The position numbers were made by a program, and so were the translations under genes. Of a stretch of 50,417 bases of DNA, positions 9,522 to 34,231 are shown one piece after another (positions within the stretch are counted from its first letter, which is position 1; every line of letters starts with the position of its first letter). Source of the DNA: Bacilli bacterium (lineage in GTDB: Bacteria > Bacillota_I > Bacilli_A > RFN20 > CAG-826); the NCBI GenBank assembly GCA_017447725.1, contig JAFSMX010000007.1:1-50417 (forward strand), read 5' to 3'. The notes below the pieces were generated by a model. That model saw only the letters and a list, made by a program, of their open reading frames with translations. It made no database searches and was not told the DNA's origin.

Positions 9522-12355
9522 TTTTGTCCTCCTAAAATCTGTGCGAGATATTGACCAGTGTATGATTTTTTGACCTTAGCAACTTCTTCAGGTGTGCCTT
9601 CGGCAACAATTGTTCCGCCTTTGTCTCCACCTTCTGGGCCAAGATCAATAATATGGTCTGCCACTTTTATGACATCAAGATTATGCTCAATGATGACAAC
9701 CGTATCACCATGATCAACAATACGATTTAAAATCTTAATCAAACGAGAAACGTCGTCACTATGTAAACCAGTAGTTGGTTCATCAAGAATAAAGATTGAT
9801 TTACCAGTTGGACGTTTTTGTAATTCGTAGGCTAATTTAACACGTTGAGCTTCACCACCAGAAAGTGTTGTTGCTTGTTGACCTAGTTTAATATAACCCA
9901 AACCAACATGACTAAGAGTTTGGAGTTTTCTCATAATTGAAGGACGATTCTCAAAGAACTTACAAGCATCTTCGATTGTCATCTCTAAAATTTCATAAAT
10001 GTTTTTACCTTTATAGGTAACTTCAAGAGTTTCTTCGTTATAACGTTTTCCGCCACAATCATCACATTTAACATAAACATCTGGAAGGAAGTTCATTGGA
10101 ATTCGTGTGACACCAGCGCCTTGGCATGTTTCACATCTTCCACCAGGAACGTTAAACGAGAAACGTCCTTTATCAAAACCACGTGAACGAGCTTCAACGG
10201 TTTCAGCAAATAAAGCACGAATATCATCAAAGACTCCAACATAAGTTGCTGGGTTAGAACGAGGTGTTCTACCGATTGGCTCTTGTGTAATATTCACGAC
10301 TTTGTCGACATACTGTAATCCATCAAAACTTGTGTGTTTACCAATTTTGACATCTTCATTTTTATTAATTGCTCGAGCAAGAATTGGGTAGAGAGTTTGA
10401 TTAATCAAAGATGATTTACCAGAACCACTAACGCCCGTGATAGCAACAAACTTTCCTAAAGGAATCTTCACATCAATCTTTTTAAGGTTGTTACATGAGG
10501 CGCCTTTAATAGTGAAATAGTTACCGTTACCTGGTCGACGTGAGGAAGGAACTTCAATCTTCTTTTTACCAGATAGATATTGTCCAGTAATTGAACGTGG
10601 TTCTTTTTCTAAATCTTCTACACTACCCGCTGCAACAACTTCACCACCATGAACACCTGGGCCTGGACCGATATCAACAAGAAAATCAGCGGCTCGCATA
10701 GTGTCTTCATCGTGTTCAACAACGATTAATGTATTACCAAGATTAACCATGTCCTTCATGGTCGCAATAAGTTTGGCATTATCTCTTTGATGTAGTCCAA
10801 TCGAAGGTTCATCAAGGACGTATAAAATACCAGAAAGTTTTGATCCGATTTGGGTAGCTAAACGAATACGTTGAGCCTCGCCGCCAGAAAGTGTCATCGC
10901 CATACGACTAAGTGTTAAATAGTTCAGACCAACGTTACATAAAAATGTTGCACGAGAATCAATTTCTTTGATAATTAATCGAGCAATTTCTAATTCAGTT
11001 GGATTCAAAACATCCAGCAATTCGTGGATATATTCAACTAATTTCTCAATTGAAAGGCATGTCACTTCATAAATATTTAAACCGTTAACTTTGACACTTA
11101 ATGCCTCTTTAGATAGACGTGCTCCATGACATGTTGGACATTCACTATCACGCATATAATACTCGTACCATTCACGCATCATTTCTGATCCGGTGTCGTT
11201 ATAAAGACGAGTAATCCGTTTTTGGATACCTTCAATAAATCCTTGTCGGTGCATGACGTTTCCATTAACGGAAGTAATTTCATATTTGAATTCTTTATCT
11301 GAACCATTAAAGATGATTTCTTTTTCTCGTTCAGTAAAGTCTTTGATCGGTTTATCTAAATCAATCTTATATTGCTTACATAAGTAAGCAAATTCTTGCC
11401 ATTCAATATTTTTAGAACCAATCATATTTCTAAACCAGCGGATTCCCCCTTGGTTAATAGAAAGTGATTCATCTGGAACCAAAACTTCTCTAGATGCTTC
11501 ACGTCTCATTCCTAAGCCTTTACAGTCTGGGCAACAGCCAAGTGGAGCATTAAAGGAGAATAATCGTGGTTCTAATTTTGGAACTGAAAAACCACATTCC
11601 GGGCAAGAATGATGTTGGGAAAATAGACGTTCTTCTTTTTCGGTAAGGAAGACACAATATCCTTTTGACCAATCGCAGGCAAGTTCGCATGCTTCAGCAA
11701 TTCGACCGCGAATTTCCGGTTTAATTACAATTCGGTCAACAACAATTTCAATATCGTGACGTTTATTTTTTTCTAGTTCTGGAGCTTCATCAATGCGATA
11801 AATTTCCTTATCAATTCGAACACGTTCAAAACCATTTTGTTTGAGTTTTGCTAGTAAATCTTTATGTGTTCCTTTTTCATTATGAGCAACTGGAGAAAGA
11901 ATTTGTAACTTTGTTCCAACCTCCATTTGCATCGCAATATCAGCCATCTTTGAAACAGAGAAGGAAATAATTGGTTTATTATGTGTTGGGCAATAAGGCA
12001 CGCCTACGCGCGCAAATAAAAGACGGAGATAATCATAAATCTCTGTCACAGTCCCAACCGTTGAACGAGGATTATGTGATGTTGTCTTTTGATCAATGGA
12101 AATAGCTGGGCTTAAACCAGTGATTGAATCAACATCTGGTTTTTCCATTCCACCCAGGAATTGCCGGGCATAACTAGATAAAGATTCAACAAATCGACGT
12201 TGTCCTTCGTTAAAAATTGTATCGAAAGCAAGTGTTGTTTTTCCACTTCCAGAAAGACCAGTGAAAACAACTAGAGCATTCTTCGGTATCTCTAGGTCAA
12301 TGTTTTTGAGGTTGTTTTCACGAGCCCCTTTGATAAAGATTGTTTTCGGTTCCAT
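9518..12355 (-). CDS. uvrA: Excinuclease ABC subunit A
   Basis: 945 residues, normal length. UvrA is the damage-recognising ATPase of nucleotide excision repair. The two ABC modules show Walker A motifs GLSGSGKTT near residue 34 and GVSGSGKSS near residue 640, and signatures [12 protein letters not shown] and [12 protein letters not shown]. Zinc modules are CPEC...CCPDC in the first half and CETCQGAG...CDDCGG in the second. uvrB, its usual neighbour, is not in the window. The gene abuts the upstream glycosyltransferase gene without a gap. Confidence 0.97.
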
Positions 12356-13528
12356 TTATTTTTTGTGTCTTTCCTGATAATTCTTAATTACGTCATCATA
12401 GCGTTTAGCCGCTTCATAAATGACTTCTTCCCATGTGTGTGGCATTTCTTTAGATGCACGTAGGCCAACTTGTTTTCTTTCTTCATCATGATCAAGGATG
12501 TAAACAAGTTTTTCTTTCATTGCTTCTGGAGTTTCTTTGGCAAGGTAGCCAGTCACACAATCGGTGTATCCTTCGGATGTATTCGATCCTTCGGTAAATA
12601 ATGTTGGGACACGGCAGACGCAAGCTTCTTGCACCGCAATCGAACTATTGTCATAAACGGATGGGAAGAACATTAAATCAGTATTCGCGAAGAATCCTTG
12701 CATCATGTCTCCGCCATAGAGTCTTCCAACAAAAGTAATGACGTTATCTAATCCAAGTTTATGAACATATTTTTTAAGTTTCTTTTCGTCGTTACCTTCC
12801 CCAACAAAGTAAAAATGGAAGTCATCTCTTTCTTTAGAAAGAAGGTTAATTGTATCAATAATTAATTTTAAGTTCTTGACTAAACGGATTTGACCAACAA
12901 AAGCGATATTTGTTTTATTTGTATCAATGTTATATTGAACGCGAACCTTTTCTTTTAATTCATCCATGTTATCTGGATAAGTAAAAGCAGTTCCGTTACG
13001 AGCAACAAAGATTTCCTTTTTATAACCATAGCTACGTAATGTATTCGCTGTAGCATTGGAAACGGCCCATACTTCATCACATTTATTAAAGAATTTCATG
13101 ACATATCTCATTAAGAAGAACGTGATTAAACGTGAATGTGTTTGTTCTAAGAAATCTCGTTTAAATTGGGAATGGAAGGTTGCCACAATTGGAACATGAT
13201 TCTTTTTCGCTTGCCTTAACGCATAGTGACCAACAAAAAATGGGGAGTGTGCGTGATAAATATCCGCTTTATGTTCTTTTAAGAATTTGTCAGTCTCTTT
13301 ACAACGTTTCGGTAAAGGAAAGATAAAATCATGGAATTTGAATAAATGACTTGATTTACGTAATAGACGATATTCGTGTTTTCCTTGATAGTTATCACGA
13401 TAATCTGGAACGACTACTGTACAATCATTGTCTTTAGACAAAATCTTTCCATAGTTATTTACAACTTTGACAACTCCATCCACATTTGGATAAAAATTGT
13501 CCATAAAATAAACAAGTTTCTTACCCAT
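12356..13528 (-). CDS. GT4-family glycosyltransferase, probably glycolipid synthesis
   Basis: 390 residues with a GT-B fold. The N-terminal acceptor domain starts [14 protein letters not shown], typical of GT4 enzymes acting on lipid acceptors (diacylglycerol or phosphatidylinositol). The C-terminal nucleotide-sugar domain has [12 protein letters not shown] and FVGEGNDEK. The E-x7-E motif appears as D-x7-E in [11 protein letters not shown], a conservative change in the first acidic residue. It overlaps the upstream flippase-like gene by eight bases. That pairing with a YbhN-type membrane protein suggests a glucosyl- or glycosyl-diacylglycerol pathway in the membrane. Substrate cannot be read from sequence. 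Confidence 0.85.
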
Positions 13529-14684
13529 TATTTTTCTCCAAATTCTTCTCTTTTTTACGCTCTCTTGATGAAATAACTGCTTTCTTAATCACATCGCGAA
13601 TTGTTAAAACAATTCCAGTAATAATGAAGATGTAATAAGTAAACAGTCTCCAGATTAAAACTCCATAGACCGCGACACCTGGAGCGACCGCGTTAAACGC
13701 TAAGGAGGAGGATATTTCCATTCCACCAGCGTTTCCTGGAGTTGGAATAAATGAAACGGCAAATGTTGAGAAAGCATTTAAACCAGCCACATCAATCAGT
13801 TGTGACCAATCAAGGCTTGTTGTTAATGATTTCATCACAAAGAATGGCAAGGCAAAAGTTAAGAAATATTCAACAATCGAAATGAGAATAAGGAAGATAA
13901 AATGCCATGGCTTCTTTGCAATGGTTCTAAAACACATTCTAAAATCAAAAACTGTTTTATAAGCTTTCTTTAGTGCTTTGTATGGATCCTTCACAATGTG
14001 AAGTCTCATACCAACTTTGACAATAAACTTTGTTAAGGCATTAGCAAAACGTGGAGCGATAACAAAAATTAACACTGATACAGGAAGTAATAAGTTAATC
14101 GTAATACCGACAATACCAGCAATAAGTAGGAAGATTCTAGAACCATTATCACCGATTTGACTTAAGGCGTGGATTCCTAGGCCCATTAAAGTTACACCAA
14201 CTAGAAGCCAACATACAATGTTGACGGAATAGCGAATCAAAATAATTGCTGAAGCGTGCGCTCCATCATAATCATGTTTATGTAGATAATGGATTTGCAT
14301 TGGCTGTCCACCGGTTGAAAACGGTGTAATGTAGTCATAATATTTTCCAAGAAGTGTGGTTTTCATTAAAATTCCTGGTCGAACATTACCCGAAACAGCA
14401 TGAGAAACAATCGCATATTCCACCACAATTAAAGATGGAATTAAAACCGCAATTCCGACAGAGATAAGTAGGTATGTAATATTAATCTCTTTAAAAAGAG
14501 TTGCTAAATCTTCGGCTTTTGCACCTGGTATAAGATCGGTAATTCTAAACATTAAATAAATACCAAGACCAATAATCAAAAGAAGGAAGATCATTCCTAA
14601 CCAACCAAACTTACGCTTTTTTGGTTCTTTAATTTCAGGCTGTTGTTCCTGATATTCTTTTTCGTATTCCTTAATGTCTTTCAT
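13521..14684 (-). CDS. YbhN/UPF0104 (lysylphosphatidylglycerol synthase TM region-like) flippase-type membrane protein
   Basis: 387 residues from the chosen ATG. After a charged N-terminus (about 30 residues) come eight or so membrane segments, and near the end the family motif FIPTPGNAGGMEI. This is the lipid-flippase-like domain of MprF without the synthase domain. Homologues are implicated in moving glycolipids or aminoacyl lipids. A start seven codons upstream is possible but would lie before the -10 box and on its own promoter DNA, so the ATG at 14684 is preferred. No ribosome site precedes it, and the mRNA is probably leaderless. It is the first gene of an operon running to 4666. Confidence 0.86.
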   Translation of the reverse strand: MKDIKEYEKEYQEQQPEIKEPKKRKFGWLGMIFLLLIIGLGIYLMFRITDLIPGAKAEDLATLFKEINITYLLISVGIAVLIPSLIVVEYAIVSHAVSGNVRPGILMKTTLLGKYYDYITPFSTGGQPMQIHYLHKHDYDGAHASAIILIRYSVNIVCWLLVGVTLMGLGIHALSQIGDNGSRIFLLIAGIVGITINLLLPVSVLIFVIAPRFANALTKFIVKVGMRLHIVKDPYKALKKAYKTVFDFRMCFRTIAKKPWHFIFLILISIVEYFLTFALPFFVMKSLTTSLDWSQLIDVAGLNAFSTFAVSFIPTPGNAGGMEISSSLAFNAVAPGVAVYGVLIWRLFTYYIFIITGIVLTIRDVIKKAVISSRERKKEKNLEKNNG

Positions 14685-14688
14685 GTGC

Positions 14689-14703
14689 GTGTATATTATA
14701 CAC
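14689..14703 (-). promoter_or_regulatory. Promoter of the flippase operon within a perfect palindrome
   Basis: The -10 box TATAAT (14695-14700) lies inside the perfect 15-base palindrome GTGTATATTATACAC. The ATG follows only 10 bases after the -10, leaving almost no 5' leader. A convincing -35 is not seen. Nearly the same palindrome covers the nifJ -10 box. Confidence 0.7.
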
Positions 14704-14704
14704 A

Positions 14705-14738
14705 AAAAAATAGCTACAACGAAGTGTAACTATTTTTT
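14705..14738 (-). terminator. nifJ terminator overlapping the flippase promoter region
   Basis: On the minus strand AAAAAATAGTTACA, a 6-base loop and TGTAGCTATTTTTT form a 14-bp stem with one G-U pair and a run of seven Ts at its end. It lies 16 bases after the nifJ stop and ends one base from the palindromic promoter. Confidence 0.88.
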
Positions 14739-14754
14739 GAGTTTAATTTATCAA

Positions 14755-17700
14755 TTATAAACCGAATTTTTTGATACGTTCCCAACGTTCCTTAGCACAA
14801 CGTTCACTCTTTTGTAAGAGTTCTTCAGCGTGGGCTGGGTTAACCTTTGGAAGTTGTGAGAATCGTGTTTCTCCCATGACGAAGTCACGGAACTTGGAGA
14901 AGTCAGGTTCTTTACAATCAAGTTGTAAAGCTGGTTTTCCTTGAGCAGCGAGACGTGGGTCATAGCGGAAGGTGGTGAAGTAACCACATTCAACAGCGGC
15001 TTTTTCAACCTTCATGGAGTTAGATAAGCCACCCTTAATACCGTGGTTAGCACATGGTGCATAGCAGATAATGATGGATGGACCTGGATAAGATTCCGCT
15101 TCTTTCATGGCTTGAATGGCTTTCATTGGGTTAGCACCTAATGAGATTTGGGCTACATAGCAGTGTCCATAGCTCATCGCAATTAGAGCAAGGTTCTTCT
15201 TTTCGCCTGTCTTACCGCTAGCGGTAAATTTAGCGATTGATCCAGTTTGAGATGACTTCGAAGATTGACCACCAGTGTTGGAGTAAACTTCGGTATCAAG
15301 AACCATAATGTTCACATCTTGGTCGTTAGCTAAGACGTGGTCAACACCACCGTAGCCGATGTCGTAGGACCAGCCGTCACCACCGATAATCCAAACTGAT
15401 TTATCAAGTAAGTCGCGTTCATAGGTAAGAACGGATTTAACTTCTTCATCTTTACTTGCTTTCACAAGTTTAACGAGTTCTGGAATGATTTTACGAGCAA
15501 CATCTTTGTTCTTAATATTTTCTAAATATTGTTTGATGACTGCTTTAAGTTCTTCTTCGACACTTTCACGAGCTAATGCTGGTTCTAAGATATCGATGAT
15601 TTGACTTAAGCGGTAGTCAACTGTTGTACGCATACCATAACCAAATTCGGCGTTATCTTCGAATAAGGAGTTGGCCCAGGCAATACCTTGACCATTCTTA
15701 TCGGTGCAGAACGGGGTTAATGGAGTTGATCCAGAGTAGATGGATGAACAGCCTGTTGCGTTAGCAATAAGCATATCTTTACCAAAGAGTTGGGAAGCTA
15801 AACGGTAGTATGGAGTTTCTCCACAGCCAGCACAGGCACCAGAGATTTCCATGTATGGCATGAGGTAGCCAACACCGTTAACGGTGTTTGTTGGGACAAG
15901 ACCAGCTTTGTATTCAGTGTGTTTGAATAAATAAGTTGCGCCTTCTTCTTGAGCAAATTGTTCTTTGGCTTCGCTCATGACAAGGGCTTTCTTGCCCATC
16001 TTGTTAGCGGTACATTCAGCAACACATAGACCACAACCGACACAGTTCTTTGGAGAAACTTGGAGACGGTATTTTAATCCTTTGCCTTTTAATGTTGGGA
16101 AGGTTGGCTCAGCGACATCGTTTTTAACGATTTCTGGAGCGTTCTTAAGTTCTTCTTCATTAATAAGGAATGGACGTAATGTAGCGTGTGGGCAGACAAA
16201 TGCACATTGGTTACATTGGATACAATCCGCTTTGTTCCATACTGGAACACGGTCAGCAATTGAACGTTGTTCCTTGTATGTAATGTCGTTTTTCATTGTG
16301 CCATCAAGAAGTTCGTATTCAGTGAACTTGGAGACTGGGAGAGTGTCACCATCAAGAGTGCCCATGACGTTAACATAGGTATCAAAGTATTCATCACCAG
16401 TTGTGGCACGGACACGGGAGTCATCAAGTTCAGCCCATTTTGGATCGACTTTAACTTCACGAAGTCCTTCAGTACCAGCATCAATGGCCTTCCAGTTGAG
16501 TTCAACAACTTCTTGGCCTTTCTTGGCGTAGGATTTTTCAGCAAATTTCTTCATCCATTTGTTGGCTTCTTCGTAAGGCATAATGTCTTGGTTAAGGTAG
16601 AAGAAGCTCGCTTGGAGAATAGTGTTTGTGTGACGTCCCATTCCAATTTCGGAAGCAATCTTGTTCGCGTCAATAACATAGAATTTAGCTTTCTTGGCCG
16701 CGAGTTGATGTTTCATGCGGTTTGGAAGAGATTTCACGAGTTGTTCATCGCTCATGTCAGTATTTAAGAGGAATGTTCCACCTTCTTTTAAATTCTTGAT
16801 CATGTCGAATTTGAACACATATGTATCAAGTGAGCAGGAAATAAAATCAGCATTTTCTACATAATATGTAGAATGAATTGGGAATTTACCAAAACGTAAG
16901 TGGGAACGAGTAACACCACCAGCTTTACGAGAGTCGTAAGCAAAGTAGGCTTGTGCGTATTGGTGTGTCGCATCACCAATAATCTTAATGGAAGATTTAT
17001 TGGCAGAGACTGTTCCATCAGATCCAAGACCATAGAAGAGACAGGATGTGTAATTGGCTTTCACATGGAATTTCTCATCAACTGGGATGGATAAGTGTGT
17101 GACGTCATCGTTAATACCAACGGTAAATCCGTGGAATGTTTTTCCTTTGAGGAAATCATAGACCGCTTTAACATGTTTTGGTTGAACGTCTTTGGAGGAT
17201 AAACCATAACGACCACCAACAACTTCAATGTCACGGCCTTCTTGCTTTAAGGCAGCCACAACATCAAGGTAGAGTGGTTCGCCAGTAGCACCCATTTCTT
17301 TTGTTCTGTCTAAGACAGCAATCTTTTTGGCGCTAGAAGGAATAACGCTAACTAAGTGTTTAGCAGAGAATGGACGGTATAAGTGAACTTTCACAACACC
17401 GACTTTCTCGCCTTCTTTTGCTAATTCATCGATAACTTCAATGGCTGTTTCGGTAACAGAACCCATGGCAACGATGACTCTTTCAGCGTTTGGATCACCA
17501 TAATAGGTAAATGGTGCATAGTGACGTCCGGTAAGTCTTTCAGCTTCTTTGAAGTACTTTTCAGCAATCTCTACAACTCTGTTGTAGTGAGCGTTTTGTG
17601 CTTCACGGCCTTGGAAGTAGACGTCATCGTTTTCGGCACCACCACGAGTCACTGGATGAGTGTGTGGATTAAGTGCACGAGCACGGAATTCTTCCACTTT

Positions 17701-18300
17701 ATCCATTGGAAGAAGTTTCTTGTATTCAGCTTCATCAACGAATTCAACGTTTTGAATTTCGTGGGAAGTTCTAAATCCATCAAAGAAATGCATCACTGGT
17801 GCACTGGATTCAATGGCAATTAAGTGAGCCATTGGTGCTAAGTCAGCGATTTCTTGGACAGAATGTGAACAAATCATTGTGATACCAGTTTGACGGCAAG
17901 CATAGATGTCTTGGTGATCGCCAAAGATGGATAATGATCTAGTTGCTAAGCTACGAGCTGAAACGTGAAGAACAGCTGGAAGCAATTCACCACACCACTT
18001 GTAGATATTTGGAATCATAAGTAACAAACCTTGTGATGCGGTATAAGTTGTGGCTAATGCACCAGCTTGGAGAGCACCGTGGACAGTTCCAGATGCACCA
18101 GCCTCGGATTGCATTTCAACAACTTTGACTGGAGTGTTGAAGAAATTCTTCTTACCTTGAGAAGCATAAACATCAACAAGTTCAGCCATTGGGGAACTAG
18201 GGGTAATTGGATAGATACCAGCAACTTCTGTAAAGTAATAAGAGCCAATTGCAGCTGCGGTATTACCATCTACCGATAGAAACGATTTTTTAATTTCCAT
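14755..18300 (-). CDS. nifJ: Pyruvate:ferredoxin (flavodoxin) oxidoreductase
   Basis: 1181 residues, the single-chain form. It converts pyruvate and CoA to acetyl-CoA, CO2 and reduced ferredoxin, the main pyruvate exit of many anaerobes. The N-terminal domain shows YPITPSSPMAE near residue 30. The two [4Fe-4S] motifs are CIQCNQCAFVCPH and CVGCGLCVAEC in the middle. A further cluster-binding CAGCGE and the thiamine-diphosphate site GGDGWSYDIGYGG lie in the C-terminal part. The start at 18300 is chosen because it has a ribosome site (AAAAGGAG) and begins MEIKKSFLSVDGNTAAA, as in the family. An upstream in-frame extension of 28 codons crosses the promoter and is rejected. Confidence 0.97.
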   Translation of the reverse strand: MEIKKSFLSVDGNTAAAIGSYYFTEVAGIYPITPSSPMAELVDVYASQGKKNFFNTPVKVVEMQSEAGASGTVHGALQAGALATTYTASQGLLLMIPNIYKWCGELLPAVLHVSARSLATRSLSIFGDHQDIYACRQTGITMICSHSVQEIADLAPMAHLIAIESSAPVMHFFDGFRTSHEIQNVEFVDEAEYKKLLPMDKVEEFRARALNPHTHPVTRGGAENDDVYFQGREAQNAHYNRVVEIAEKYFKEAERLTGRHYAPFTYYGDPNAERVIVAMGSVTETAIEVIDELAKEGEKVGVVKVHLYRPFSAKHLVSVIPSSAKKIAVLDRTKEMGATGEPLYLDVVAALKQEGRDIEVVGGRYGLSSKDVQPKHVKAVYDFLKGKTFHGFTVGINDDVTHLSIPVDEKFHVKANYTSCLFYGLGSDGTVSANKSSIKIIGDATHQYAQAYFAYDSRKAGGVTRSHLRFGKFPIHSTYYVENADFISCSLDTYVFKFDMIKNLKEGGTFLLNTDMSDEQLVKSLPNRMKHQLAAKKAKFYVIDANKIASEIGMGRHTNTILQASFFYLNQDIMPYEEANKWMKKFAEKSYAKKGQEVVELNWKAIDAGTEGLREVKVDPKWAELDDSRVRATTGDEYFDTYVNVMGTLDGDTLPVSKFTEYELLDGTMKNDITYKEQRSIADRVPVWNKADCIQCNQCAFVCPHATLRPFLINEEELKNAPEIVKNDVAEPTFPTLKGKGLKYRLQVSPKNCVGCGLCVAECTANKMGKKALVMSEAKEQFAQEEGATYLFKHTEYKAGLVPTNTVNGVGYLMPYMEISGACAGCGETPYYRLASQLFGKDMLIANATGCSSIYSGSTPLTPFCTDKNGQGIAWANSLFEDNAEFGYGMRTTVDYRLSQIIDILEPALARESVEEELKAVIKQYLENIKNKDVARKIIPELVKLVKASKDEEVKSVLTYERDLLDKSVWIIGGDGWSYDIGYGGVDHVLANDQDVNIMVLDTEVYSNTGGQSSKSSQTGSIAKFTASGKTGEKKNLALIAMSYGHCYVAQISLGANPMKAIQAMKEAESYPGPSIIICYAPCANHGIKGGLSNSMKVEKAAVECGYFTTFRYDPRLAAQGKPALQLDCKEPDFSKFRDFVMGETRFSQLPKVNPAHAEELLQKSERCAKERWERIKKFGL

Positions 18301-18322
18301 TTCGAAAACTCCTTTTGTATGC

Positions 18323-18349
18323 GTGTCTATTATACACGTTGCGCACGTG
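18323..18349 (-). promoter_or_regulatory. nifJ promoter with two overlapping inverted repeats
   Basis: The -10 TATAAT is at 18329-18334. It lies in GTGTCTATTATACAC (18323-18337), one base off the perfect palindrome at the flippase promoter. Next to it the spacer holds CACGT-n5-ACGTG (18335-18349). The -35 region is poor, as expected for a regulated promoter. The 5' leader would be about 22 bases and includes a normal ribosome site. Confidence 0.65.
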
Positions 18350-18361
18350 GGAATAATAAAA

Positions 18362-18381
18362 AAATCGGATGAAACCGATTT
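18362..18381 (-). terminator. Terminator after the small basic protein gene
   Basis: On the minus strand AAATCGG-TTTCAT-CCGATTT is a 7-bp stem continuing into a T-rich run (TTTTTTATTATT). It separates the gene ending at 18401 from the nifJ promoter. Confidence 0.88.
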
Positions 18382-18400
18382 CATTGATTATTCGCGTGCG

Positions 18401-18832
18401 CTATTTTCTTTTCTTTTTCTTATTAGGTTTATCGTTTTTCAGAGCTTCTAATTCTTGATTAACAAGGTGTCTAAGAACCTTTAAATCCTTCTCATCAAGA
18501 GGAATATTTCGGTCGACTAAACCACCGATTGTCATCTTGTTATAAACGAAATCCGCCACCGATTTATATTGGTCAATATCGGCTTTTTTCACCGCAATTC
18601 TTGGTTCTTTTTTCTCTTTCGATTGTTCTTCAATATATTTTTCAAGTGCAGGAACAAGCTCGCGAAGATTGTAAGTTGGATCCATAGCTAGCATTGGCTC
18701 AAACTCACTTAATTCAGAAGCAATAATTTCTGGATAAATACCCATGTGTAAAGAAAGAGCTTCACATGTTAGGTGTTTTCTTTTACTTCCATGAATTGCT
18801 GATAGATATTTCTTCGCCGTTGTCTTGTTCAT
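18401..18832 (-). CDS. Conserved-looking small protein of unknown function with basic tail
   Basis: 143 residues from the ATG at 18832. I do not recognise the family. The first 50 residues (KKYLSAIHGSKRKHLTCEAL and onward) look helical and could form a winged-helix-like DNA- or RNA-binding fold, and the C-terminus is strongly basic (KPNKKKKRK). No membrane segment or signal peptide. A longer reading from a TTG at 18874 overlapping the kinase gene is possible. The ATG is favoured because a good promoter ends exactly before it, giving a leaderless mRNA. Nucleic-acid binding is only a guess from charge. Confidence 0.75.
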   Translation of the reverse strand: MNKTTAKKYLSAIHGSKRKHLTCEALSLHMGIYPEIIASELSEFEPMLAMDPTYNLRELVPALEKYIEEQSKEKKEPRIAVKKADIDQYKSVADFVYNKMTIGGLVDRNIPLDEKDLKVLRHLVNQELEALKNDKPNKKKKRK

Positions 18833-18838
18833 GCTGTT

Positions 18839-18867
18839 ATTATAAACCTTTTTATATAAATAAACAA
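18839..18867 (-). promoter_or_regulatory. Promoter giving a leaderless mRNA for the small basic protein
   Basis: TTGTTT (18862-18867), a 17-base spacer, then TATAAT (18839-18844). Only six bases (AACAGC) separate the -10 from the ATG, so the predicted start of transcription is the A of the start codon. No ribosome site is present. Confidence 0.75.
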
Positions 18868-18870
18868 AAC

Positions 18871-19383
18871 TCAATACTTATAATGGAACGAATCTTTGAC
18901 ATTTGGCGATTCAAACCACCCATTAATTTCAATAACTTCATCAAATTTATTCTTGGTTTCTTCGGATGGATCTTCCCATCTTTCCCACATGGATTTTATC
19001 GCATTCTCAGGAACAAATTTAGCTTCATTTCGAACATGATTTTGTTCAAGAATTTTTTCTAATTTTTTCTTTAAAACGACAAGCACTGAACGATCAAAAT
19101 TTGGGCACTTTTCTAAGGCAAATAGCCGTAAATTGTCGGTAATATTGGTCGAATCAGCGATTACTGTGACTTCATCATATTTCAACAAATATTCGTTAAT
19201 TCGATCATAGAAAATTTGCCACACTTCTTCTTCATGAGTAAGGTCTTGATATTGACCAGTTAATTCTTTTCTAATCCCGTCAGAGGAAACGATTTTGACA
19301 TGTTTATGTGTCAAACGGTATTGCTCTGACCAAGTTGACTTTCCACTTCCTGGTAGGGCTGATAAAACTATCAGTGTTCTCAT
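18871..19383 (-). CDS. P-loop kinase of the polynucleotide-kinase/zeta-like AAA group
   Basis: 170 residues. Walker A is ALPGSGKSTW near residue 9. A switch-like SSDGIRKELTG near residue 33 resembles the substrate or lid segment of polynucleotide kinases and zeta-toxin-like kinases, and VIADSTNITDNLR near residue 75 supplies a Walker-B-like Asp. Such stand-alone kinases phosphorylate nucleic acids, nucleotide sugars or small metabolites; the substrate is unknown. The stop TGA overlaps the possible TTG start of the next gene. No ribosome site precedes the ATG, which lies seven bases after a TACAAT box. Confidence 0.82.
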   Translation of the reverse strand: MRTLIVLSALPGSGKSTWSEQYRLTHKHVKIVSSDGIRKELTGQYQDLTHEEEVWQIFYDRINEYLLKYDEVTVIADSTNITDNLRLFALEKCPNFDRSVLVVLKKKLEKILEQNHVRNEAKFVPENAIKSMWERWEDPSEETKNKFDEVIEINGWFESPNVKDSFHYKY

Positions 19384-19390
19384 GCTTTTT

Positions 19391-19418
19391 ATTGTACCTT
19401 AATCAGTGGGTTAGTTAA
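19391..19418 (-). promoter_or_regulatory. Promoter giving a leaderless mRNA for the P-loop kinase
   Basis: TTAACT (19413-19418), a 16-base spacer and TACAAT (19391-19396), with seven bases to the ATG. It starts right after the tRNA-Lys terminator. Confidence 0.6.
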
Positions 19419-19424
19419 AGAAAA

Positions 19425-19444
19425 AACCACTCTAATGAGTGGTT
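19425..19444 (-). terminator. tRNA-Lys terminator
   Basis: AACCACTC-ATTA-GAGTGGTT on the minus strand, a perfect 8-bp stem followed by TTTTC, ten bases after the CCA end of the tRNA. Confidence 0.9.
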
Positions 19445-19453
19445 AATGTATTT

Positions 19454-19529
19454 TGGTGCGCCATGTAGGATTCGAACTCACGACCCACTGATTAAGAGTC
19501 AGTTGCTCTACCAGCTGAGCTAATGGCGC
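19454..19529 (-). tRNA. tRNA-Lys (anticodon CTT)
   Basis: Cloverleaf on the minus strand: acceptor GCGCCAT/ATGGCGC, D stem GCTC/GAGC, anticodon stem ACTGA/TCAGT with loop CTCTTAA giving anticodon CTT, loop TTCGAAT, discriminator A and an encoded CCA. The T stem is imperfect: GTGAG opposite CCTAC leaves one G-U pair and one A-C mismatch, where GTAGG would be expected. It is a single-gene unit with its own promoter and terminator. Confidence 0.95.
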
Positions 19530-19547
19530 GTTGTGCTTAACTAATAT

Positions 19548-19553
19548 ATTATA
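19548..19553 (-). promoter_or_regulatory. -10 box of tRNA-Lys
   Basis: TATAAT on the minus strand, 18 bases before the mature tRNA 5' end. The -35 region is T-rich (TTTTTGTTG) and only weakly consensus. Confidence 0.65.
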
Positions 19554-19598
19554 AGTTAAGTTAAATTACAACAAAAATACACCATAAGAAAAGAAAAA

Positions 19599-19620
19599 GG
19601 AACCCACCGAAATGAGTTCC
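19599..19620 (-). terminator. Terminator of the carbohydrate ABC operon
   Basis: GGAACTCA-TTTCGG-TGGGTTCC on the minus strand, an 8-bp stem with one G-U pair, followed by TTTTTCTTTTCTT. Confidence 0.9.
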
Positions 19621-19637
19621 CTTTAATTAAATTTTTC

Positions 19638-21020
19638 TTATGCAATCTGATCTGCGGAGAATGGAATGATTGTCCAGACGCCGGCGGTACGGATTGAGTA
19701 ATCGTTTTTAGCAACAACGCTACGGTCATTCATCCAACGGATGGAACCGCCAATAGCAATTGTTGAGCCAACAGCTGCACTCTTAAGAATTTGATCGCAA
19801 GCACTAACGAATGCATCACTATCCTTACAAGCGTGATAGTCAGTAGCAACGATTAATGGTGTTGTACCAATTAAGACTTCAAATTCATAACGTTCGCTCT
19901 TAGAGTTACAAGCTGAACGGTTTGACATCATATCTGTTAAGACAGTGTCAGAACCAGAAGCGTTTTTAACTTTGTAGATTTTACCGTTAAATTTGACTTC
20001 GGTCTTGGCAACAACTTTGTTGAAGATGGTATTTGTCGCCCAGTTAGTATTCTGAATCATTGTTTCATCATAAGCTTCTGGAGCAACAATTGGTTTAATA
20101 TCTGGATCTGTTCCTTCAATCTTAGCGATCTTTTGAACATAAGATAATTGAATATTACCGAAACCAGAAGAGATTTGTGCTTGAATAGTGATTGGCACAT
20201 TCATGACAGAGTCACGAATGGAAGTCCAACCAGTGTATTCATCTAAACGATAGATTTGAACAGCTTTATCACCGTTTTGAAGAATACCCCAGTTACCGTC
20301 TTGAGCAACATAGGTTAAGATACCTTTTGTTTCAATCCAGTATGCAGCTTGACCATCAACTTGAGATAAGTCTTCGGTATAAGCCCCTGGAATAACAGTA
20401 CCACCGGTATCTTTCTTACCAGTCATCCATGTCAATTTACCATCAGCGGCTTCGTAAAGTTCATCAAGAGACATCTTTTTGAAGACCTTATCAAGTGGGT
20501 TAAGCACAAGAACATAAGTCTTTTCTTTGGTCTCTCCATTACAAGTACCTGTTGCTTTAACAGAGAATCGTGGATAGTTAGCTGTTTCAGCAAGTTGGCT
20601 TGGCCATCCTTTAAATGCAAGGAGGGTCTTTTTACCTTCATCTGATGGTGTTTGGCTTTCAATATAATCAGTGGCTGGTTTAGCTTCGCTACCAACTTTA
20701 GCTGAAAATTCAAATGTGAATGTGAAGTTATAGGTATCGCCGCTATCAAGATCAGCGTAACTACGTTCGTTCGCTAATGTAGCGAATGATGTAGCCGGGG
20801 TCGAAGGCATAACTTGAGCTTCACGGCCTTCAACGACTGATGTTGAAGCACCAACACTAACGGCACCAGAGAATCCGCCTTCCCAGGCGAGTTCTGGAAC
20901 GGCACCGCCGCTTCCACCACTGGTTGATTTTTTCTTCTTGCCGTTGCGTGGAGCGCAAGCAACAAGAGCAACCATCGCGAGTGCTACAAATGCACTTAAT
21001 AGAACTTTTGCTTTTTTCAT
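19638..21020 (-). CDS. Predicted lipoprotein of unknown function, ABC-operon partner
   Basis: 460 residues. The N-terminus is a type II signal: MKK, a hydrophobic stretch, and lipobox LVAC at about residue 22, followed by a basic and Gly/Ser-rich linker. The mature part is rich in Thr, Ala and aromatic residues. Segments such as GILTYVAQDGNWGILQNGDK followed by FGNIQLSYVQKIAKIEG look like OB-fold or beta-sandwich domains of secreted proteins, but I cannot assign a family. It is the last gene of the importer operon, 18 bases after the binding protein, so it may help capture or process the same carbohydrate at the surface. Confidence 0.78.
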   Translation of the reverse strand: MKKAKVLLSAFVALAMVALVACAPRNGKKKKSTSGGSGGAVPELAWEGGFSGAVSVGASTSVVEGREAQVMPSTPATSFATLANERSYADLDSGDTYNFTFTFEFSAKVGSEAKPATDYIESQTPSDEGKKTLLAFKGWPSQLAETANYPRFSVKATGTCNGETKEKTYVLVLNPLDKVFKKMSLDELYEAADGKLTWMTGKKDTGGTVIPGAYTEDLSQVDGQAAYWIETKGILTYVAQDGNWGILQNGDKAVQIYRLDEYTGWTSIRDSVMNVPITIQAQISSGFGNIQLSYVQKIAKIEGTDPDIKPIVAPEAYDETMIQNTNWATNTIFNKVVAKTEVKFNGKIYKVKNASGSDTVLTDMMSNRSACNSKSERYEFEVLIGTTPLIVATDYHACKDSDAFVSACDQILKSAAVGSTIAIGGSIRWMNDRSVVAKNDYSIRTAGVWTIIPFSADQIA

Positions 21021-33320: not shown

Positions 33321-33486
33321 CAAAAATATAAAATTTTCTTTTTCTTGTTAATAAGATAGTGGTCTTGATTGTTGTAAAAATAAACGAAAATCTCGTATTT
33401 TTCTTTAAAATTCATCCTTATCAAAACTTTTATCCTTAAGGATAAGAAATCATTACTGCAAAAAACTTTTATAAAATAAAGTTTTT

Positions 33487-33495
33487 TGCTACAAT
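33487..33495 (+). promoter_or_regulatory. Extended -10 promoter for the small plus-strand peptide
   Basis: TGCTACAAT on the plus strand is an extended -10 element. Transcription would begin near 33502 and give a 69-base leader before the peptide ATG. The -35 region is weak. Just upstream lie an AT-rich 10-bp inverted repeat (AAAAAACTTT...AAAGTTTTTT) and the palindrome TTATCCTTAAGGATAA. The rest of 33330-33480 is AT-rich with no gene seen. Confidence 0.55.
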
Positions 33496-33570
33496 TCGAA
33501 TTGACAAAGAAAAGTCATAAAAACTCGGAACGGAAATCTCTGATCTATTATTAGTGAGGAGGTATACTAC

Positions 33571-33660
33571 ATGAAAGACAATCTTAATGAAGCCTTAGTG
33601 CTTCTTAAAATTGCACTGTTGTGTATTCTGGTTAGTTTAGTTGCCTTGCTTCTAAAATAA
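33571..33660 (+). CDS. 29-residue hydrophobic peptide, candidate type I toxin
   Basis: Too short for routine gene calling. ATG at 33571 has a strong ribosome site (GAGGAGG, 8 bases spacing). The peptide has a short polar head (MKDNLNEA), then one membrane-spanning segment of Leu, Ile and Val with a single Cys, and ends LLLK. The size and layout resemble type I toxins such as Fst/TxpA-like peptides, without clear identity to any. It is the only supported plus-strand gene in 50 kb. A minus-strand RNA with its own promoter ends opposite its 3' region. It could instead be a regulatory membrane peptide; toxicity is inference. Confidence 0.7.
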   Translation: MKDNLNEALVLLKIALLCILVSLVALLLK

Positions 33661-33662
33661 AG

Positions 33663-33737
33663 AAAAAAACCCTGTGGCTAGGGTTTTGAAGAACCATGTC
33701 TTAATATCCAGTTGTAGATATGGGTTTCCGTTCTTCT
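33663..33737 (-). ncRNA. Small structured RNA convergent with the 29-residue peptide gene
   Basis: A TATAAT box at 33744-33749 predicts a start at about 33737. The RNA of about 75 bases would fold as GAAGAAC/GTTCTTC (33730-33736 with 33688-33694) enclosing ATATC...GATAT, then end at the 33667-33686 terminator with seven Ts. It is complementary to the peptide mRNA 3' untranslated region if that mRNA passes the weak plus-strand stop of the shared hairpin. This is the arrangement of type I antitoxin RNAs such as RNAII of par or RatA. Confidence 0.55.
33667..33686. terminator. Bidirectional terminator shared by peptide gene and antisense RNA
   Basis: AAACCCT-GTGGCT-AGGGTTT forms a 7-bp stem. On the minus strand it is followed by a seven-T run, on the plus strand by only four Ts, so it should stop minus-strand transcripts (the small RNA and perhaps gtrA read-through) better than the peptide mRNA. 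Confidence 0.8.
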
Positions 33738-33743
33738 GGATAC

Positions 33744-33749
33744 ATTATA
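33744..33749 (-). promoter_or_regulatory. -10 box of the convergent small RNA
   Basis: TATAAT on the minus strand, 26 bases after the gtrA stop codon. No strong -35; the region upstream is AT-rich (TTTCTT at about the right distance). Confidence 0.5.
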
Positions 33750-33775: not shown

Positions 33776-34231
33776 TTATTTATTTTCTTCGGATGAATTT
33801 GGTTCATCCTTTTCTTTTACAGCGGTATCAAGTGATTTTCCAAAGACAAAGTATCTTTGATATAAGAACTCTGTAACAAAGTTAATCGCCATATTTATGC
33901 CTGTGGCCACATAAGGCGATCCAGGGAATGTCCATTTATTTGTTAACACCCATTCAAGTTGTAATGAAAGAGGTGTAAATACAATGTAATAGGCCACCAC
34001 TTTTAACATCGCGATTGGAACATTACTCGCGCTTTTAAATGTATACTTACGATTAAACGTGAAGTTCCAGATGACTGAAAGAACTAGCGCAATTCCATAA
34101 CTAATCCAATGATCAAGATGCGCAACTTCTTCAAGAAGAGTAAAGGAGATGATTTGAACAACTCCGGCCGAGATAGAGAAGAGGGTAAACTTCGCCGCTC
34201 TAAATACTTCTTTACGGTCGACTTTTTTCAT
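33776..34231 (-). CDS. GtrA-family membrane protein
   Basis: 151 residues with four membrane helices and short basic ends. Recognisable features are KFTLFSISAGVVQIISFTLL at the start, NFTFNRKYTFKS in the middle and FVTEFLYQRYFVF near the end, typical of the GtrA/DPMS family that moves lipid-linked sugars or takes part in wall-polymer and glycosylation pathways. It stands alone between the unknown structured RNA and the peptide locus. No ribosome site is seen; a TAAAAT box lies eight bases before the ATG. Confidence 0.88.
   Translation of the reverse strand: MKKVDRKEVFRAAKFTLFSISAGVVQIISFTLLEEVAHLDHWISYGIALVLSVIWNFTFNRKYTFKSASNVPIAMLKVVAYYIVFTPLSLQLEWVLTNKWTFPGSPYVATGINMAINFVTEFLYQRYFVFGKSLDTAVKEKDEPNSSEENK

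What the first reader, a model, noticed from the sequence alone, without database searches (positions are those of the whole stretch)
33487..33749. Candidate type I toxin-antitoxin locus: 29-residue membrane peptide with convergent RNA
The only plus-strand gene in the window is a 29-codon ORF with an optimal ribosome site encoding one hydrophobic helix. Opposite its 3' side a minus-strand promoter predicts a 75-base folded RNA ending at a shared bidirectional terminator. This is the architecture of par/fst and txpA-ratA loci, but the peptide matches none that I recognise.
Basis: partly seen in the sequence, partly recalled or inferred. Interest (0 to 1): 0.8.

Follow-up and report, generated by a model that had tools for sequence, protein, structure and literature searches.

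The report
New family of gut-bacterial self-poisoning switches
The 29-residue membrane peptide and the RNA opposite its end belong to an apparently undescribed, often tandemly repeated family of type I toxin-antitoxin-like units in an uncultured Bacilli lineage, in which the two ends of the toxin message, its ribosome site and the antisense RNA have evolved together as one RNA switch.

Summary
A 29-codon hydrophobic ORF (33571-33660, +) with a strong ribosome site faces a minus-strand ~76-nt RNA (-10 at 33749-33744, terminator 33687-33666). It is not a lone oddity. Relatives occur at 94 places in 55 of 224 genomes of the same family, in tandem arrays of up to six units encoding different 25-29-residue peptides. 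None was found in 55 genomes from other families of the order, or with the full signature in phage or plasmid collections. A leader model built without the window finds the window unit at E 5.6e-13. The peptides are under purifying selection and match no Pfam, NCBIfam, PADLOC or PHROG family.

Each unit has a 5' hairpin and an anti-Shine-Dalgarno segment 'a'. Segment 'a' can pair either with the SD or with the mRNA 3' region (a'), which the antisense RNA covers. Both pairings co-vary (0 of 10,000-20,000 permutations) and carry G-U pairs on the mRNA strand. So the antisense RNA repeats the leader sequence.

Best explanation: a type I toxin-antitoxin family whose antisense RNA keeps the SD closed, either by capturing a' or by covering the SD directly. 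Toxicity and transcription are untested. It resembles par/fst in layout but fails its peptide motif.

The parts
33468..33495 (+). Predicted toxin-mRNA promoter: -35-like TTTATA, extended -10 TGC-TACAAT (hexamer 33490-33495)
   Evidence: start about 33502-33503, directly at the 5' hairpin. Family-wide the plus promoter is weak and variable (10 of 79 perfect TATAAT).
33503..33516 (+). 5' terminal hairpin H1 (GAC-AAAGAAAA-GTC)
   Evidence: Sequence. Stem co-varies across the family: GAC/GTC 44, GTC/GAC 24, GGC/GCC 4 (pair counts).
33517..33527 (+). Conserved unpaired linker ATAAAAACTCG (family consensus TTAAAACTCG)
   Evidence: Near-invariant columns in alignment A1.
33527..33539 (+). Segment 'a' GGAACGGAAATCT: pairs with a' near the mRNA 3' end; its 3' part is the anti-SD
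   Evidence: 9-nt perfect inverted repeat with 33725-33733 (reached by 115 of 5000 shuffles for the window alone). Co-variation over 72 units, 0 of 20,000 permutations.
33558..33562 (+). Shine-Dalgarno GGAGG
   Evidence: predicted to pair with segment a.
33571..33660 (+). ORF for the 29-aa hydrophobic peptide (putative toxin)
   Evidence: purifying selection; no family match, with positive controls.
33662..33737 (-). Predicted antisense RNA (putative antitoxin), about 76 nt, start about 33737
   Evidence: conserved counterpart in 79 units.
33666..33687 (-). Intrinsic terminator hairpin of the antisense RNA
   Evidence: 8 pairs, loop of 6, then TTTCTTTATT.
33725..33733 (+). Segment a' (TTTCCGTTC) in the mRNA 3' region, lying inside the antisense RNA gene
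33744..33749 (-). Antisense promoter -10 TATAAT
   Evidence: counterpart perfect in 74 of 79 units (the element was used to delimit units, so this count is biased upward).
33791..33814 (+). Possible plus-strand terminator of the toxin mRNA, inside the 3' end of gtrA
   Evidence: 8 pairs, loop of 3, then TTTTCTTTTA; function not tested.

Best explanation
The locus is one member of a new type I toxin-antitoxin family. The plus strand makes a short mRNA starting at a small 5' hairpin and encoding a 25-29-residue membrane peptide. A strong opposing promoter makes a ~60-76-nt antisense RNA covering the mRNA 3' region. In the leader, anti-SD segment a pairs with the SD, so a nascent message should not be translated. 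In the full-length message of most members, a is predicted to pair instead with a' near the 3' end, loosening the SD hairpin. The antisense RNA begins with a copy of a. By duplexing with a' it should return a to the SD, or it may cover the SD with its own anti-SD, and the duplex should attract RNase III. Loss of the antisense RNA would then release a membrane-active peptide. Shown: conservation, co-variation, strand, coding selection. Inferred: transcription, toxicity, direction of the switch.
For: 94 motif places in 55 of 224 family genomes, against 8 hits in 7 genomes for the reversed-pattern control. Tandem arrays with different peptides. The leader covariance model, trained without the window, hits the window at 63.9 bits, E 5.6e-13. 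Leader/3'-region duplex: own partner -26.1 vs permuted -18.8 kcal/mol (sd 0.40), 0/20,000; within subfamilies own partner better in 57 of 65, p 8e-11. a:SD co-variation 0/10,000, while three control segment pairs show none. G-U pairs lie on the mRNA strand: a:a' 128 vs 26, a:SD 83 vs 13. Masking the 3' region raises mean SD:a pairing from 0.32 to 0.95; the SD is clearly more open in the full-length mRNA in 26 units and less open in none. pN < pS in 28 of 28 independent pairs. The flanking DNA is 98% and 91% identical to genome G023, which lacks the toxin but keeps an antisense-like stretch. Analogues: BsrG/SR4 (PMC4147584) and timPR (PMC11228461).
Against: No transcript or toxicity data. In the window unit itself the a:a' helix and the SD hairpin can coexist (SD:a 0.84 full-length, 0.76 masked), so the predicted switch is weak there. 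Family-wide the SD is only modestly freed (mean unpaired 0.02 to 0.17). The antisense 5' part also co-varies with the SD, so relay and direct blocking cannot be separated. Permutations do not fully remove shared ancestry. The pN/pS pairs were chosen by peptide similarity (at least 60%), which lowers pN.
Confidence: 0.8

Rival explanations
1. par/fst-like direct blocking: the antisense RNA pairs at the 3' overlap and then its own anti-SD (CCTC) covers the SD in trans; the mRNA a:a' helix only stabilises or circularises the message.
For: SD region x antisense 5' part co-varies, 0/10,000. par RNA II works in this way (PMC7472228).
Against: That signal follows automatically if the antisense repeats segment a and a pairs with the SD. 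G-U pairs show that a:a' is itself kept as RNA on the mRNA strand.
Confidence: 0.35
2. The 5'-3' helix is an inhibitory lock as in hok or aapA: the full-length mRNA is inert and 3' trimming activates it.
For: Long-distance 5'-3' interactions of this kind are known in aapA/IsoA (PMC6733600). The SD remains mostly paired even in the full-length predictions.
Against: Here a:a' removes the anti-SD rather than sequestering the SD; with the 3' part masked, the SD becomes more closed, not less. SD x a' and SD x c show no co-variation.
Confidence: 0.2
3. A small regulatory or signalling membrane peptide with antisense control, not a toxin.
For: No toxicity data; peptides are conserved and lie among housekeeping genes.
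Against: Tandem arrays of divergent peptides, gain and loss between near-identical sites, toxin loss beside a kept antisense-like stretch, and extra toxin-less antisense copies fit toxin-antitoxin behaviour better.
Confidence: 0.15
4. A non-coding mobile repeat whose inverted repeats are ends of an element; the ORF is incidental.
For: Repeated units, inverted repeat at both ends, presence/absence at sites.
Against: Purifying selection on the ORF, SD co-variation, G-U strand bias, no transposase noticed among the neighbour genes.
Confidence: 0.03

Closest known systems
BsrG/SR4 (and TxpA/RatA), Bacillus subtilis
   Same: Convergent toxin mRNA and antisense RNA overlapping at their 3' ends (TxpA/RatA about 75 nt, BsrG/SR4 about 120 nt); in BsrG, SR4 bound at the 3' end deepens SD sequestration far away (PMC4147584).
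   Different: Much shorter peptide (25-29 aa); co-varying anti-SD segment shared by leader and antisense RNA; chromosomal tandem arrays instead of prophage or skin; no sequence similarity found.
par/fst (RNA I/RNA II) and the Fst/Ldr superfamily
   Different: No PxxxG motif (0 of 71), no Pfam Fst or Ldr match. The shared sequence is an inverted repeat, so the antisense mimics the leader; only a short SD stretch acts like a direct repeat.
timPR (enterobacteria)
   Same: Mutually exclusive mRNA conformations with the antitoxin acting on one, no processing needed (PMC11228461).
   Different: Different peptide, lineage and gene layout; the alternative pairing here is 5'-3' rather than a local pseudoknot.
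aapA/IsoA (Helicobacter) and hok/sok
   Same: Long-distance 5'-3' pairing and a leader hairpin that blocks the SD in the nascent message (PMC6733600).
   Different: There the long-distance pairing hides the SD; here it removes the anti-SD.
Ldr/Rdl and Ibs/Sib (E. coli)
   Same: Repeated multicopy hydrophobic peptide genes with antisense RNAs (PMC4147584).
   Different: Antisense covers the 3' region, not the coding region or the ribosome site; no sequence similarity.

Membership tests
Type I toxin-antitoxin systems (general) | Small hydrophobic peptide under selection | tested here: met
   25-29 aa, pN < pS in 28 of 28 pairs
Type I toxin-antitoxin systems (general) | Antisense RNA gene complementary to the toxin mRNA | tested here: met
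   Conserved -10, body and terminator opposite the mRNA 3' region, at sequence level
Type I toxin-antitoxin systems (general) | Peptide is toxic and the RNA neutralises it | not testable with these tools
   Needs expression experiments
par/fst | Fst peptide profile, PxxxG motif | tested here: not met
   0 of 71 peptides with PxxxG; no Pfam Fst match while Fst itself is found, below the curated cut-off
par/fst | Direct repeats DRa/DRb giving RNA I/RNA II complementarity at the ribosome site | tested here: inconclusive
   Main repeat is inverted, but a short SD stretch in the leader matches the antisense 5' part and co-varies
par/fst | Convergent promoters with a shared bidirectional terminator | tested here: inconclusive
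   Convergent promoters yes; terminator good on the minus strand, U-poor on the plus strand
TxpA/RatA, BsrG/SR4 | Convergent RNAs with a 3' overlap of about 75-120 nt | tested here: met
   Predicted overlap about 60-80 nt
TxpA/RatA, BsrG/SR4 | Related toxin or RNA sequence | tested here: not met
   No Pfam, NCBIfam or Rfam match
TxpA/RatA, BsrG/SR4 | Antisense binding at the 3' end changes SD accessibility | tested here: inconclusive
   Predicted by folding, not measured; weak for the window unit
Ldr/Rdl | Ldr toxin profile | tested here: not met
   No match; positive control found at E 5.7e-27

The most novel reading that the evidence does not exclude
A type I toxin-antitoxin family in which the antisense RNA imitates the toxin mRNA's own leader and represses from a distance. 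By taking the leader's 3' partner it hands the anti-SD back to the ribosome site. Each unit keeps its own co-evolved leader/partner pair, so neighbouring toxins in an array could be controlled independently.
Probability: 0.4. Interest if true: 0.72.

Novelty: new variant of a known kind. Interest (0 to 1): 0.6.

Why it matters
It adds a large, apparently undescribed type I toxin-antitoxin family to an uncultured gut and rumen Bacilli lineage, with dozens of natural variants of both peptide and RNA. The co-evolved pairing makes a clear, testable model of how a 3'-overlapping antisense RNA can control a distant ribosome site, a question raised by BsrG/SR4. The arrays and the near-identical sites with and without toxin also allow the gain, loss and independent control of chromosomal toxins to be studied.

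Tried and rejected
Rfam at gathering and relaxed thresholds: no RNA family match. Pfam, NCBIfam, PADLOC, PHROGs: nothing for the peptides. Phages and plasmids: no BLAST match; 57 viral contigs hold the 14-mer core but none has the 5' hairpin beside it, so these are taken as chance. Full-text search for peptide and leader strings: none. Antisense pseudoknot (helices S1 and S2 cross): both co-vary, but the S1 5' arm lies within about 8 nt of the -10, so it may not be in the antisense RNA, and its strand bias is weak (p 0.01); left open. A loose regular expression for orphan antisense genes gave mostly false hits and was replaced. Distant leader-model hits in other families of the class (25-32 bits) are not counted as members.

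Full report
CHECK OF THE OBSERVATION. On the other strand, TATAAT (33749-33744) and a terminator hairpin with a U-run (33687-33666) frame an RNA of about 76 nt that folds better than any of 200 shuffles (z -3.06). The neighbouring minus genes are a GtrA-family protein (33776-34231) and ribosomal protein S12. The larger plus ORFs that were tested are shadows of minus genes.

A FAMILY, NOT A SINGLETON. A search of 59 relatives with the peptide gave clear homologues in several genomes, some in tandem. Their leaders share GAC-AAAGnAAA-GTC, TTAAAACTC, GGAACGGAGnCCTC and an SD. A pattern for the leader found 94 places in 55 of 224 genomes of the same taxonomic family (13 of 35 genera), against 8 hits in 7 genomes for the reversed pattern. 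None of the 55 genomes from other families of the order matched a related, stricter pattern. From the fetched loci 87 candidate units were read and 79 parsed in full. They encode several peptide subfamilies (for example MKDD..LLKIALICLLLSLLALLLK, MKTNKEIVYAFLLGIIELVCLILELIR, MEPLKKVISLIVLCLLLCLLILIFK). Arrays reach five units by the parser, six counting L015 in G003. A covariance model of the leader, built from 31 sequences without the window's, finds the window at 63.9 bits, E 5.6e-13, and one other good match in its genome.

CODING SELECTION AND NOVELTY OF THE PEPTIDE. In 28 independent pairs of related ORFs, pN is below pS every time (means 0.126 and 0.460); shifted frames do not show this as clearly. 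Pairs were chosen at 60% or more peptide identity, which lowers pN. The peptides match nothing in Pfam, NCBIfam, PADLOC or PHROGs, while Fst and Ldr used as controls are recognised.

RNA ARCHITECTURE. (1) The 5' hairpin stem co-varies: GAC/GTC 44, GTC/GAC 24, GGC/GCC 4. (2) Segment a (GGAACGGAGnCCTC) pairs with the mRNA 3' region: own partner -26.1 vs permuted -18.8 kcal/mol, 0 of 20,000; within peptide subfamilies own partner is better in 57 of 65 (p 8e-11). (3) The 3' half of a pairs with the SD: 0 of 10,000, while three control combinations show nothing. (4) G-U pairs occur when these helices are read on the mRNA strand (128 vs 26 and 83 vs 13), so they act as RNA in the message. (5) The terminator-like helix co-varies and leans to the antisense strand (108 vs 70, p 7e-4). 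(6) The antisense -10 is perfect TATAAT in 74 of 79 units, against 10 of 79 for the mRNA (the antisense element was used to delimit units, so the first count is biased upward). A strong antisense and weak toxin promoter is what a type I system needs (general knowledge).

HOW IT PROBABLY WORKS. With the 3' region masked, as by the antisense RNA, the SD is paired to a with probability 0.95; in the full-length message this falls to 0.32, because a pairs with a' at 0.90. The SD is more open by over 0.2 in 26 units and less open in none, although the mean unpaired value rises only from 0.02 to 0.17. I infer a message closed while nascent, loosened when complete, and closed again when the antisense RNA takes a'. 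Because the antisense RNA repeats a, it can also pair with the SD directly (0 of 10,000), so direct blocking is a serious rival. In the window unit the two helices can coexist, so this member is a poor test of the switch.

GAIN AND LOSS. The same-genus genome G023 (recorded as an uncultured Bacillales bacterium) has the same site, with 98% and 91% identical flanks. There, the window stretch 33342-33743 (402 nt) is replaced by about 111 nt that lack the leader and ORF but keep an antisense-like promoter, arms and terminator. Five further antisense-like copies without a toxin follow toxin units elsewhere. Arrays sit between housekeeping genes such as recA and rny or rpsO and pnp (names from the sequence starts, by my own recognition), and 10 of 59 lie just upstream of an XRE-type regulator. 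No phage or plasmid match was found.

COMPARISON. Layout is that of TxpA/RatA, BsrG/SR4 and par/fst (PMC4147584, PMC7472228). Membership in par/fst fails on the peptide (no PxxxG, no profile match) and is inconclusive on the direct repeats. The closest working analogues are BsrG/SR4, where 3' binding deepens SD closure, and timPR, with mutually exclusive conformations (PMC11228461). aapA/IsoA uses a 5'-3' interaction with the opposite logic (PMC6733600). No held paper contains the peptide or leader strings; subscription literature was not searchable. Verdict: a new family and variant of type I toxin-antitoxin modules, well supported as an RNA-regulated peptide gene pair, with toxicity and the switch direction still to be shown.

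Noticed in passing
L142 1515-1816 (G000:C34, near the contig end): The window's own genome has a second unit (MKTNKEIVVAFLLVIVDLIYLILELFR) with intact leader and ORF but no recognisable antisense part in the 3' region; an orphan toxin or an assembly-edge effect.
   Followed up: partly
L186 (- 1675), L187 (- 1671), L188 (528, 648), L189 (1728): Extra antisense-like RNA genes without leader or ORF directly follow toxin-bearing units: possible orphan antitoxins.
   Followed up: partly
L275, L276, L277 (genomes G499, G304, G493, another family of the class): A similar leader (GACAAAACAAAGTCTTTAAAACTCCAGACTAC) precedes a different small peptide (MKFLYKLFKTMADALIICNVNVSDVKW and relatives) with no antisense part seen. 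It may be a distant cousin or a shared leader design.
   Followed up: partly
L139, L140, L142, L151, L152: Arrays at one syntenic site (after a sugar-kinase-like gene) in five same-genus genomes differ in number and type of units, showing rapid turnover.
   Followed up: partly
L130, L131, L133, L146, L160, L180, L181, L183, L184, L185: Ten of 59 arrays lie just upstream of an XRE-type helix-turn-helix gene (MSKETIGPKIK.FR...), possibly a linked regulator or an insertion hotspot.
   Followed up: no
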